Assembly: GCF_000577275.2 (NCBI RefSeq)
Contig: NZ_HG916855.1
Span: 1,674,001-1,738,000 of the forward strand
DNA from: Rhizobium favelukesii
GTDB taxonomy: Bacteria; Pseudomonadota; Alphaproteobacteria; Rhizobiales; Rhizobiaceae
DNA: 64,000 nucleotides
Direction: 5' to 3'
The notes under the pieces are model-generated. The model made no database searches, was not told the DNA's origin, and was given only the letters and a program-made list of their open reading frames with translations. Made by a program: the position numbers and the translations under genes. Positions 25,289 to 27,926 of this stretch are shown in pieces (positions within the stretch are counted from its first letter, which is position 1; the number at the start of each line of letters is the position of its first letter).

Positions 25289-25498
25289 CAGCGGATAGGC
25301 AGGCGAGTTGCCTCTCTCGCCGCTGAGGTGGCAGAAGAACTAGGGTTGGCTGCCGTCTGGTGGCATCCTGAGTATGCGGTGTTGGCGTGGAAGCAGTACG
25401 TCGGGTTCGAGCGAAAAGCCCGGAATTATGTAGCAAATGCCACAAGATTCCATTGTCTGGAATGACTACCTTTAGGTTGCACCTAAAGGGGTTGAGAC

Positions 25499-25873
25499 AT
25501 GACTGCGATCGTTGCTGAACTGAAGAGAAAATTGGCGGAGCTGGACACCAGGATCGATCAGCTTAGGGCAGACCTGGCGGTCGCTGATGATCAACGGAAA
25601 GCCGTGGTCACGGTAATCGGGGTGTATGATCCAGACGGTGCCAAAGAGGTCGCACAACGGGAGGTGAGAAGTGACCGCTCGACACAAGCGAGGCGGGTGA
25701 CAGACCTTCTGAAGGGACGCGATCTGCGCCGCGGCATCTTGGAAACCCTACGAGATTATTCTCTGCCGTCACCGTATGCGAAGATCACAGACAAAATTGC
25801 TTCTTACGCGAAAATGGTAGACATTTCGGTTGACACACGCATTGTTATGCGAAATTCTATTATGCGAAACTGA
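25499..25873 (+). CDS. Coiled-coil hypothetical protein, possibly C-terminally truncated
   Basis: A 124-residue protein. Residues 3-40 (IVAELKRKLAELDTRIDQLR and beyond) form a clear coiled coil, followed by VIGVYDPDGA and a short helical segment LLKGRDLRRGILETLRDYSLPSP. Proteins with this beginning and a C-terminal winged helix are common beside mobile genes in alphaproteobacteria. Here the C-terminal part is replaced by residues encoded by the direct repeats that start at 25774, so the gene may be truncated. An AAGGGG lies ten bases before the ATG. It is 69 bases upstream of the Fic gene. Confidence 0.5.
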   Translation: MTAIVAELKRKLAELDTRIDQLRADLAVADDQRKAVVTVIGVYDPDGAKEVAQREVRSDRSTQARRVTDLLKGRDLRRGILETLRDYSLPSPYAKITDKIASYAKMVDISVDTRIVMRNSIMRN

Positions 25874-25909
25874 CAGACAAAAGCGGATCTTATGCGAAAC
25901 TGAGAGACA
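25774..25909. repeat. Five imperfect direct repeats upstream of the Fic gene
   Basis: Copies of TTATGCGAAACTGACAGACA or close variants begin near 25774, 25804, 25845 (half copy), 25860 and 25890, all in one orientation. The spacing between copies 1-2 and 4-5 is exactly 30 bases, about three helical turns. The last copy ends 33 bases before the Fic start. The arrangement looks like an array of protein-binding sites. An operator bound by the Fic protein's own N-terminal domain, or the remains of an IS21-like end, are the two readings I consider. Confidence 0.6.
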
Positions 25910-25942
25910 TTTTGGCTGATGTGATCGCCTTAGGAGAAGAAA

Positions 25943-27502
25943 ATGGCTATTTATTTCACGCCGACAGGTGATGCAGCAGAAGACAAGCGCATTTGGAGGC
26001 TTCACGCCTCAGGCCGCGTGGAAAAGTTGGCTAACGGAATTTATTACCAGCAGGAAGGAGAGACAAGAGAAGCGGAAATCAGGCGCAACTGGCAACGGCT
26101 GGTGGTGAAACTGGTGCCGCATGCAGTGATCACTGACAGGACCGGAATGGAAGTGAAGCCGGTAAGACATTCCGATGACGGTCCCTACAACGTATATGTC
26201 GTCGCTCCTCGGAGCCGATGGACTTTTGAGTTGCCTGGCCTCTCCATCCATGTCCGGAAAGGCCACGGCCCCGCAAATGGCGACATTCCGTACCTAGGGA
26301 CGCACCTTGCCGGACAAGAACGGCGACTGCTCGACAACTTGGCATTCTCACGCGCCCGCAAAGGTGAAGGGAGCCGCACCTTGGGAGAAGCGGCGGTGGA
26401 AGCGAAGCTTGACGAATTGTGCCGCGCGAACGGCGCTGAATATCTGAACGGCATCCGGGATCGTGCGCGGCATCTAGCGCCCTTGCTCGACCGGGACACC
26501 GAATTTCAACGTTTAAACGGGATTATCGGCACACTGCTCAATACCCACAAGGACAAGATGTTGACCCCTCAAGGCCGCGCTCGGGCCGCCGGGACACCAA
26601 TCGATGTCGCTTGTGTGGAGAGATTCCAGAAGCTCATCACCTACATGGCCGCTCGTGCGCCACAGGCCATACTGAACGCTGACACGAACCCGGACCGACT
26701 GATGGCGAGTTCCTTTGTCGAGGCCTATTTCTCGAACTACATCGAGGGAACTGAGTTCGCCGTCGACCAAGCTACGGAAATCGTGTTCGAGGGGAAGATT
26801 CCGGACGATCGGCCGGAGGATGGTCATGACGTCCTGGGGACCTACCTGCAACTCGTCGAGCGCGTTGAACGACCTCCGTCGCGCACGAGCTTTGAAGAAT
26901 TCAAGGACGAGATCAGAACACGGCACGGCCGCCTCATGGAAAGCCGTCCCGGCATCAAGCCAGGACAGTTCAAGACGCAGACCAACCGCGCGGGCGACAC
27001 ATCCTTCGTCACTCCCGATCTCCTCGAAGGAACTTTGAGGGAGGGCCACGCCATGATGGCGAGCATCCAGGACCCTTTCCATAGATCGCTCTTCCTTCAT
27101 TATATGATGGCGGAAGTCCATCCCTTCAATGACGGCAACGGGCGCATCAGCCGCATATTGATGACCCGAGAGCTTCTGTCGGCCAACCTGTCCCGTATCG
27201 TCGTACCTACCGTTTTCCGCGATGACTATGTGGATTCGCTGCGCGCTCTTTCGCGACGAGACGAGCCGTCGATCTTCGTCCGAAACCTGGAGTTCTGCCA
27301 GCGCGTGTCAGCGGCGTGCTCAGCGTCGACGGCCGCAGCGGCCATCGACCTTTGGGCCAAGACCTACGCCTTCTGCGAAGATTCCCGTGAAGCCCGGCTG
27401 ACGATGCCAAATGCCGCTCTCAACATCACCAACAGAAATGGCGTCTATGCGCCCGACGACTATTGGCAAGCACTCGCCAACAAGAACGGCTTGGGTCTCT
27501 GA
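25943..27502 (+). CDS. Fic-family protein with AbiEi-like N-terminal domain
   Basis: A 519-residue Fic protein, a family that usually transfers AMP to target proteins. The complete active motif HPFNDGNGRISR lies at about residues 393-404. A class II-type inhibitory motif S-x-x-x-E-G (SNYIEG, about residue 264) comes before it, so activity is probably self-restrained. The first 130 residues (RIWRLHASGRVEKLANGIYY and onwards) resemble the winged helix of AbiEi-type antitoxin/regulators, suggesting DNA binding. Five direct repeats upstream are a candidate target. It is the main gene of the 2.2-kb inverted-repeat element. Confidence 0.88.
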   Translation: MAIYFTPTGDAAEDKRIWRLHASGRVEKLANGIYYQQEGETREAEIRRNWQRLVVKLVPHAVITDRTGMEVKPVRHSDDGPYNVYVVAPRSRWTFELPGLSIHVRKGHGPANGDIPYLGTHLAGQERRLLDNLAFSRARKGEGSRTLGEAAVEAKLDELCRANGAEYLNGIRDRARHLAPLLDRDTEFQRLNGIIGTLLNTHKDKMLTPQGRARAAGTPIDVACVERFQKLITYMAARAPQAILNADTNPDRLMASSFVEAYFSNYIEGTEFAVDQATEIVFEGKIPDDRPEDGHDVLGTYLQLVERVERPPSRTSFEEFKDEIRTRHGRLMESRPGIKPGQFKTQTNRAGDTSFVTPDLLEGTLREGHAMMASIQDPFHRSLFLHYMMAEVHPFNDGNGRISRILMTRELLSANLSRIVVPTVFRDDYVDSLRALSRRDEPSIFVRNLEFCQRVSAACSASTAAAAIDLWAKTYAFCEDSREARLTMPNAALNITNRNGVYAPDDYWQALANKNGLGL

Positions 27503-27620
27503 CTTGGCCTGATCTAAAAAATGGAGCCTTCCCGGACAGCTGCGAGTGGGATGCACCCCGTGAATTTTAGCTTTCATTCGTCCGAGAAACTGTCCCCGTG
27601 GCATTTGCTACATAATTCTG

Positions 27621-27926
27621 GAAAAGCCGAGGCATCGCCGCGGGAACCCAAAATAGCCTTCATCGACTTGTGCCCCTTGATACCAGCCCGCTTCTCGGCA
27701 TGCTTGCCGGACGAGGTGGAACCGGTTGCGTGTTCCTCGCTTCGGCGAGCATGGTCGTCGTCGCGTGCCCGATTGCGCTTTGGCTGAACCAAAAGCCGGT
27801 CTTGGAACATTCATGAAGCATTCTCATAACAGCATCCGGGAATGACCGGCTAATCCGTTCCCCAAAAGATGACTATTTATCTCACCGAGCCCGCTTGATC
27901 GCGGCCGCACAGAAGGAAATCCCAGA
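27621..27926. other. Gap between Fic element and cupin gene
   Basis: It begins with the right copy of the 8-bp duplication (27621-27628). Reading frames on both strands stay open across the former insertion site when the element is removed, but none has a recognisable product and I do not call a gene. A ribosome binding site AAGGAA for the cupin lies at about 27914. Confidence 0.4.

What the first reader, a model, noticed from the sequence alone, without database searches (positions are those of the whole stretch)
25413..27628. Transposase-less 2.2-kb element with inverted repeats and 8-bp duplication carrying a Fic module
The sequence shows imperfect terminal inverted repeats (22 of 23 bases) and a perfect GAAAAGCC duplication bordering exactly 2200 bp. 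The interior encodes only a coiled-coil protein and a Fic enzyme with an AbiEi-like N-terminus. A cargo-only unit that moves a protein-modifying Fic enzyme, presumably by a transposase acting in trans, would be a new kind of mobile toxin or defence cassette.
Basis: partly seen in the sequence, partly recalled or inferred. Interest (0 to 1): 0.82.

Follow-up and report, generated by a model that had tools for sequence, protein, structure and literature searches.

The report
Transposase-less cassette carrying a Fic enzyme
A 2.2-kb stretch of rhizobial DNA is a hitch-hiking mobile cassette: it has the ends of a known transposon family but no transposase, carries a Fic protein-modifying enzyme, and has sister cassettes with other cargo, often toxin- or defence-type genes.

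Summary
Window 25421-27620 is exactly 2200 bp with 23-nt ends (22/23 identical) and a perfect 8-bp duplication. A 97.3% identical copy sits at another site in Rhizobium sp. T1470/T1473 with its own 8-bp duplication. The same ends bound 43 elements collected here: 10 carry an IS1595-family transposase, 2 carry remnants of it, 31 (this one included) show none. Two sister cassettes have empty sites. So it is a mobile insertion cassette (MIC) of an IS1595-type transposon, presumably moved in trans; no close transposase was found in its genome. MICs are a known category. What looks new is the cargo: 14 of 43 elements carry toxin- or defence-type genes, among them four different Fic proteins against 0.03 expected. 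The coiled-coil ORF is a decaying remnant of the transposon's accessory gene. The Fic has intact catalytic and self-inhibition motifs, is under purifying selection between the two copies, and has a weakly supported AbiEi-like N-terminus. Upstream lies a repeat array of about 30-bp period; many distant homologues have arrays of their own, which suggests that this Fic represses its own gene. Toxicity, defence and trans-mobilisation are untested.

The parts
25413..25420 (.). left copy of the 8-bp target duplication GAAAAGCC
   Evidence: read directly
25421..25443 (+). left terminal inverted repeat, 23 nt, first base conserved in 99% of 86 ends
25499..25873 (+). 124-aa coiled-coil ORF: truncated remnant of the 152-163-aa accessory gene of the transposase-bearing sister elements; conserved C-terminal half lost
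   Evidence: tblastn and alignment
25771..25916 (+). array of direct repeats (units at 25771, 25801, 25842, 25857, 25887, the third partial), core TTATGCGAAA-N4-AGACA; predicted operator of fic
25943..27502 (+). fic, 519 aa: Fic-domain enzyme
   Evidence: Pfam Fic 5.4e-13; model pLDDT 93.7; fold matches
25985..26257 (+). residues 15-105 of Fic: weak AbiEi-like N-terminal region, predicted DNA binding
   Evidence: PADLOC AbiEi 9e-4; homologues
26732..26749 (+). residues 264-269, SNYIEG, predicted self-inhibition motif before the Fic core (motif definition recalled)
   Evidence: S264, N265, I267, E268, G269 invariant in 52 homologues
27119..27145 (+). residues 393-401, catalytic motif HPFNDGNGR
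   Evidence: H393, F395, D397-R401 invariant in 52 homologues
27598..27620 (-). right terminal inverted repeat, 22 of 23 identical to the left one
27621..27628 (.). right copy of the 8-bp target duplication GAAAAGCC
   Evidence: read directly

Best explanation
The 2200-bp segment is a mobile insertion cassette: a non-autonomous element with the ends of a rhizobial IS1595-family transposon. It most likely arose when the transposase part of a full element (end, coiled-coil gene, transposase, passenger, end) was replaced by a fic gene with its upstream repeat array, leaving a truncated coiled-coil gene behind. Shown: the same ends and 8-bp duplications as elements that carry an IS1595 transposase; a second insertion site for this same cassette; empty sites for two sister cassettes. 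Inferred: it is moved in trans by such a transposase, which it must meet in another host or receive from elsewhere, since no close one was found in its own genome. The cargo is most likely a self-contained, self-restrained Fic enzyme that transfers AMP or another nucleotide part to a host protein. Its SNYIEG motif would hold the HPFNDGNGR site in check until a trigger releases it, and its AbiEi-like N-terminus would bind the repeats and repress its own gene, so that the module can land anywhere without harm. A role in phage defence or in keeping the cassette is a guess.
For: Same element at two sites with different duplications. 36 unique elements with these ends and perfect 8-bp duplications, against 0 in three shifted controls. 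IS1595 transposase in sister elements. Truncated accessory gene in this cassette, and a sister (L095) caught with transposase remnant plus cargo. Empty sites. The same cargo at different sites: AbiEii-like gene in four genomes, DUF4143 in two. Motifs invariant in 52 homologues; fic has dN about 0.005 and dS about 0.027 between the two copies while the left part of the cassette has more changes (odds ratio 5.7, p 2e-8). Repeat arrays before fic: best spacing 30-32 bp in 13 of 20 fic loci against 5 of 72 control regions; with a match score of at least 15 of 20, 9 of 20 against 2 of 72.
Against: No close transposase in the own genome, so mobility today is unproven; a distant, apparently frameshifted IS1595-like gene is there. 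No empty version of this very site. The T1470 copy has damaged ends: 3 mismatches left, a 2-base gap right. The AbiEi-like signal is weak. Four of 20 fic loci show no repeated unit by the copy count. Enzyme activity, toxicity and DNA binding are untested.
Confidence: 0.85

Rival explanations
1. The cassette is a fossil: an element that lost its transposase after it had inserted, and that has moved only as part of larger DNA since. What persists is a useful fic gene between decaying ends.
For: No close transposase in the own genome or in the T136, T1470 and T1473 plasmid records. Coiled-coil gene decayed and T1470 ends damaged. Truncated relics in G471 and G477.
Against: The window's own ends are intact. 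The two copies are transposase-less with the same internal structure at two sites, each with its own perfect duplication, so the transposase was lost before at least one of the two insertions. Transposase-less AbiEii-like cassettes sit at four sites with four different duplications.
Confidence: 0.1
2. The cassette is autonomous through an unrecognised recombinase, the coiled-coil protein or the Fic protein.
For: These are the only two ORFs of note in it.
Against: The coiled-coil gene accompanies a real IS1595 transposase in 8 of 8 transposase-bearing elements and is truncated here; 29 of the 31 transposase-less elements lack it. Sister cassettes move with unrelated single genes such as a cupin, a PIN-domain gene or a methyltransferase.
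Confidence: 0.02
3. The coiled-coil ORF is the antitoxin of the Fic, so the two form a toxin-antitoxin pair.
For: It lies upstream of fic on the same strand.
Against: Its relatives go with the transposase, not with fic. It is broken into pieces in T1470 while fic stays open there. The window Fic has its own SNYIEG motif; another cassette, L059, has a separate VbhA antitoxin for its Fic.
Confidence: 0.05
4. The ends and the duplication are chance or an assembly artefact.
For: None found.
Against: 0 in 100 shuffles; 0 in shifted controls; independent records hold the element at two sites.
Confidence: 0.01

Closest known systems
IS1595 family, including IS with passenger genes ('transporter IS')
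   Same: Sister elements with the same ends carry an IS1595-family transposase with its zinc ribbon. 8-bp duplication (that this is typical of the family is recalled). IS with passenger genes are described, with the 2009 IS1595 paper cited for them (PMC3129680, passages).
   Different: This element has no transposase. The sister elements carry a coiled-coil accessory gene that I have not seen described for the family (the 2009 paper was not read).
Mobile insertion cassettes (MIC), e.g. MIC231
   Same: IS ends, no transposase, a passenger gene, presumed trans-mobilisation (PMC3129680 and PMC4133298, passages).
   Different: The named example belongs to another IS family (recalled). Here the ends are IS1595-type, and 14 of 43 elements carry toxin- or defence-type cargo.
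Tn3-derived miniature elements and mosaic non-autonomous transposons (TIMEs)
   Same: Transposase-less elements that carry foreign modules between transposon ends and insert in AT-rich DNA (PMC4133298, passages).
   Different: Tn3 ends of 38 bp and 5-6-bp duplications there; 23-nt IS1595-type ends and 8-bp duplications here.
Toxin-antitoxin genes in Tn3-family transposons
   Same: Toxin modules as transposon passengers; PIN_3 and HEPN types are among the section headings (PMC7157771, abstract, outline and section 14).
   Different: There mostly embedded next to the resolvase inside the transposition module; here the module mostly replaces the transposase. Fic is not among those section headings (other sections not read).
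Class II Fic enzymes (SoFic, FICD)
   Different: About 220 extra N-terminal residues with an AbiEi-like signal, and a repeat array upstream of the gene.
AbiEi antitoxins of type IV AbiE systems
   Same: Weak N-terminal similarity. AbiEi and Rv2827c repress their own operons through promoter repeats (PMC7319586, passages).
   Different: Here fused to Fic, no AbiEii partner in the element, direct repeats of about 30-31-bp period where AbiEi uses 23-bp inverted repeats.

Membership tests
IS1595-family transposon ends (as non-autonomous derivative) | terminal inverted repeats shared with elements that carry an IS1595 transposase | tested here: met
   10 of 43 elements with these ends carry it
IS1595-family transposon ends (as non-autonomous derivative) | 8-bp target duplication (family trait recalled) | tested here: met
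   GAAAAGCC; 39 of 43 perfect, 4 at 7 of 8 (most elements were selected by this trait)
Autonomous IS1595-family IS | own DDE_Tnp_IS1595 transposase | tested here: not met
   no match of three sister transposases in the element; Pfam finds only Fic
Mobile insertion cassette | IS ends, no transposase, passenger gene | tested here: met
Mobile insertion cassette | has moved as a unit | tested here: met
   two insertion sites with own duplications
Mobile insertion cassette | mobilised in trans by the cognate transposase | not testable with these tools
   needs a transposition assay
Class II Fic enzyme | catalytic motif HxFx(D/E)GNGR | tested here: met
   HPFNDGNGR, invariant residues
Class II Fic enzyme | (S/T)xxxE(G/N) inhibitory motif N-terminal to the core (definition recalled) | tested here: met
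   SNYIEG at 264-269; that it inhibits is not tested
Type IV AbiE toxin-antitoxin system | AbiEi-type DNA-binding N-terminus | tested here: inconclusive
   weak matches; fold comparison covers mainly residues 225-462
Type IV AbiE toxin-antitoxin system | AbiEii nucleotidyltransferase partner | tested here: not met
   only the remnant ORF (no Pfam family) and fic are in the element
Type II toxin-antitoxin (VbhTA / FicTA) | separate VbhA-type antitoxin gene | tested here: not met
   no such ORF in the window element; present in sister cassette L059

The most novel reading that the evidence does not exclude
In the Rhizobiales, IS1595-type ends define an open cassette system in which single self-contained toxin- or defence-type modules (four Fic types, HipA/HTH, HEPN/MNT-type, PIN, AbiEii-like, DUF4143) repeatedly replace the transposase and spread by borrowing transposases in trans, a transposon-based counterpart of gene-cassette pools. 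Such cargo may help cassettes persist in hosts where they cannot move. In the window's cassette the Fic enzyme itself carries the DNA-binding domain that represses its own gene through a lineage-specific repeat array of about 30-31-bp period.
Probability: 0.4. Interest if true: 0.78.

Novelty: new variant of a known kind. Interest (0 to 1): 0.62.

Why it matters
Short cassettes with no genes for their own movement carry toxin- and defence-type modules one by one among symbionts of legumes and their relatives. The family offers defined ends, a defined target preference, empty sites and candidate transposases, so that movement of such cargo in trans becomes directly testable. The Fic cargo adds a second testable idea: a Fic enzyme that may be its own repressor, with a different operator in each lineage.

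Tried and rejected
Transposase in the own genome: the L054 transposase gave one hit of 23 bits. PF12762 gave two adjacent pieces, 33.6 and 32.8 bits, both over the cut-off, on contig C59: a distant and apparently frameshifted IS1595-like gene. The stretches around these (L197, L198) hold no family end at the threshold used. Whether that gene could act on these ends is unknown.

Empty version of the window's own site: flank searches in plasmids and in 148 genus genomes (listing capped) showed only T136, with the same insertion, and partial matches to the DHFR-family gene or the cupin. Not found.

Link of fic relatives to the ends elsewhere: L203, L204 and the own-genome fragment in L196 show no end, so this Fic family also lives outside such cassettes. 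Relics with an end are in G471 (L199, L200) and G477 (L201); the last two share the flank and so the site.

Unpaired ends: 37 of 65 sources showed no pair with a duplication of at least 7 of 8; of the other 28, the pairs in L062, L077 and L085 rest on poor second ends and were not counted as elements. Some stretches stop at a chunk or contig edge, some loci are duplicates of others, some ends may be decayed. L003 itself was missed by that scan because of its damaged right end.

Repeat array as a piece of another IS: rejected, because many homologues of fic carry arrays at the same place and the motif, at up to 2 mismatches, occurs in the own genome only there (the reversed control pattern had 1 match). 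A solo array without fic exists in L202.

No AbiEi structure was listed in the fold comparison; that output covers mainly residues 225-462, so nothing follows.

The MazF-like look of the 135-aa cargo in L138 found no support in Pfam or PADLOC; it is not in the toxin count. The 195-aa NTP_transf_6 protein in L151 was not counted either.
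Full report
THE ELEMENT. The 2200 bp at 25421-27620 lie between two copies of GAAAAGCC, with 23-nt ends that match inverted at 22 of 23 positions. At up to 3 mismatches the end occurs nowhere else in the window or in the 7.57-Mb genome. Two ORFs of note lie inside, 25499-25873 (124 aa) and 25943-27502 (519 aa, Pfam Fic).

IT HAS MOVED. Blastn in the plasmid collection found it in Rhizobium sp. T136 at 100% with the same flanks, and at 97.3% in T1470 and T1473 over exactly the 2200 bp. In T1470 and T1473 the flanks differ and another 8-bp duplication, CATTCTTG, borders it. 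The same cassette thus sits at two sites, each with its own duplication. The T1470 copy has damaged ends (3 mismatches left, a 2-base gap right). No empty version of the window's own site was found.

A FAMILY WITH THE SAME ENDS. Of 394 genomes drawn from the family, 30 have the end at up to 2 mismatches: 42 matches against 8 of the reversed control pattern, several as inverted pairs. A scan of genome contigs for CGGAATTANGTAGCAANTGCCAC gave 46 stretches, with titles naming Rhizobium, Sinorhizobium/Ensifer, Mesorhizobium, Phyllobacterium, Neorhizobium, Agrobacterium, Allorhizobium, Ciceribacter, Metarhizobium and unnamed Rhizobiales or Rhizobiaceae. In 30 genomes reached through these loci the end at up to 3 mismatches has 137 matches against 5 of the control (genomes chosen for having it). 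With a weight matrix over the loci then on hand, 40 pairs had a perfect 8-bp duplication, 36 of them unique elements, against 0, 0 and 0 when the duplication was sought 5, 11 or 17 bp further out. With L003, four elements at 7 of 8 and two found through the transposase (L208, L209) the working set is 43 elements, 85 kb. Not every end has a partner: 37 of 65 sources had no pair.

ENDS AND TARGET. The consensus of 86 ends is CGGAATTAGGTAGCAAATGCCAC; the first C is 99% conserved. The 39 perfect duplications have mostly G or C at the outer positions (AT 15% and 5%) and an AT-rich middle (up to 92%), roughly [CG][AG]A[AT][AT][AT]T[CG]. GAAAAGCC fits except at two places.

THE TRANSPOSASE. L054 carries a 342-aa protein with DDE_Tnp_IS1595 (7.5e-45) and the IS1595 zinc ribbon; NCBIfam names it IS1595 family transposase. 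Of 41 elements tested by tblastn 8 carry this transposase (L057 and L122 only in pieces), 2 carry remnants (L095, 116 aa; L176, 44 aa) and 31 show none. L208 (Ensifer adhaerens) and L209 (Phyllobacterium zundukense) were found by their transposase and have the ends with perfect duplications.

THE COILED-COIL ORF. Relatives (152-163 aa where intact) lie near one end in 8 of 8 transposase-bearing elements. The window's version matches over about 90-100 residues and then loses the conserved C-terminal half. In T1470 it is in pieces. Of the 31 transposase-less elements only this cassette, in its two copies, keeps any of it. It is best read as a remnant of the parent transposon. L095 shows the route: transposase C-terminus, coiled-coil pieces and a DUF4143 gene in one element.

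EMPTY SITES AND REPEATED CARGO. Two cassettes in Rhizobium leguminosarum bv. viciae USDA 2370 (L080) are absent from R. leguminosarum TpK pRL1 (L205). For the hydrolase cassette the flanks are contiguous there across one GTGTTCAG; R. indicum L206 is also empty, and L207 gave no match at my cut-off. For the PIN cassette L205, L206 and L207 have contiguous flanks with a near match to one GGTATGTG. The same cargo recurs at sites with different duplications: the AbiEii-like gene in L093, L102, L157 and L167 (88.6-98.4% identical in DNA), DUF4143 in L095 and L119 (91.4%), a membrane protein at two places of one contig in L079 and L116 (90.2%), and the window's fic in L003.

CARGO. 14 of 43 elements carry toxin- or defence-type genes: this fic in the window and L003; other Fic proteins in L057, L023 (same element as in L059, with a VbhA antitoxin) and L096; PIN_3 plus a small partner without family in L080; nucleotidyltransferase plus a partner that only PADLOC matches in L084 (that the partner is HEPN-type is my reading); HipA plus HTH in L110; AbiEii-like in L093, L102, L157, L167; AAA/DUF4143 in L095 and L119. 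L057 also has a transposase and L095 a remnant. The AbiEii call is weak (24.7 bits, cut-off 22.5) and was tested on L093 only; DUF4143 was tested on L058, the copy of L119. DUF4143 and the L084 pair match PADLOC candidate defence models PDC-S01 and PDC-M05. Other cassettes carry ordinary genes such as a cupin, a methyltransferase, a transporter or a cyclase. Only for Fic was a background measured: 55 hits in 19 genus genomes of 131 Mb predict 0.03 in the 77 kb of 40 elements (L003, L208, L209 left out), against 4 seen (P 4e-8); leaving out the window, which was chosen for its Fic, 3 seen (P 5.5e-6). That background is genome-wide and not matched accessory DNA, and the grouping 'toxin- or defence-type' was made after seeing the cargo.

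THE REPEAT ARRAY. Upstream of fic lie units such as TTATGCGAAACTGAGAGACA about 30 bp apart. A 72%-identical homologue outside a cassette (L203) keeps related units. Among 20 fic loci (near-duplicates L003, L215, L230 and the relics left out) from Alpha-, Beta- and Gammaproteobacteria and Bacteroidota, the best-matching repeat pair has a spacing of 30-32 bp in 13, against 5 of 72 upstream regions of other ORFs in these loci (p 2e-7). Two of the 13 (L224, L227) score at noise level; with a score of at least 15 of 20 it is 9 of 20 against 2 of 72. Three or more copies occur in 11 of 20 against 3 of 72 (p 8e-7), and four of 20 show no repeated unit. The letters differ by lineage, e.g. AAAAACACGACA in Variovorax. 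AbiEi proteins repress their own operons through promoter repeats (PMC7319586, passages). With the weak AbiEi-like signal this suggests that the Fic is its own repressor. That is inference.

HOST. No close transposase was found in the own genome, in the T136, T1470 and T1473 plasmid records that hold the cassette (one 25.6-bit match each) or in G471 and G477 (none). Other replicons of the T strains were not searched for it. The cassette is probably stranded in its host unless a matching transposon arrives.

WHAT IS KNOWN. Mobile insertion cassettes and IS with passenger genes are named in PMC3129680, which cites the 2009 IS1595 paper for the latter (passages); that paper I did not read. Trans-activation of such cassettes is discussed in PMC4133298 (passages), toxin-antitoxin genes in Tn3 transposons in PMC7157771 (abstract, outline and section 14). 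Searches of the held library for IS1595 with toxin-antitoxin and passenger, mobile insertion cassette with toxin-antitoxin, IS1595 with Rhizobium, cassette and MITE terms, IS1595 with Fic and passenger and IS1595 with defence terms listed no paper whose title or abstract start describes this family. For most of these I saw only the listing, and most subscription journals are missing from the library.

VERDICT. The class, a MIC of an IS1595-type transposon, is known. The cargo bias and the self-contained Fic module make it a new variant worth testing.

Noticed in passing
window 25771-25916; L203, L204, L212-L214, L216-L229: AbiEi-like Fic genes often have a lineage-specific array of direct repeats of about 30-31-bp period just upstream of the start, outside this cassette family too.
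   Followed up: partly
L202 5570-5771: A stretch 82% identical to the repeat array of the window but with no fic downstream: a solo array.
   Followed up: partly
L199 4353-5199; L200 4723-5030; L201 4747-5054: Truncated relics of the same fic and right end in genomes G471 (98% and 89%) and G477 (89.7%); the last two relics share their flank.
   Followed up: partly
L196 4337-4454 (G000:C61:744000-753000): A decayed fragment about 69-73% identical to the fic N-terminal part elsewhere in the own genome, without family ends.
   Followed up: partly
G000:C59:772099-772433 (L197): A distant IS1595-like transposase gene in two adjacent pieces in the own genome, without family ends around it.
   Followed up: partly
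L124 1894-7901: The largest element with these ends (6 kb, perfect duplication) carries several non-toxin ORFs; they were not annotated by a family search.
   Followed up: no
L096 2086-3657: Another cassette has a different 523-aa Fic protein (PADLOC SoFic 9e-21) whose long N-terminal part has no strong family match.
   Followed up: no
L060 3018 and 17948; L061 13408-14151: Three ends within about 30 kb of one genome (G347); only the third has a partner, a 744-bp cupin cassette.
   Followed up: no
L104 373-825: A transposase-bearing element in Agrobacterium vitis carries a DUF2442 passenger.
   Followed up: no
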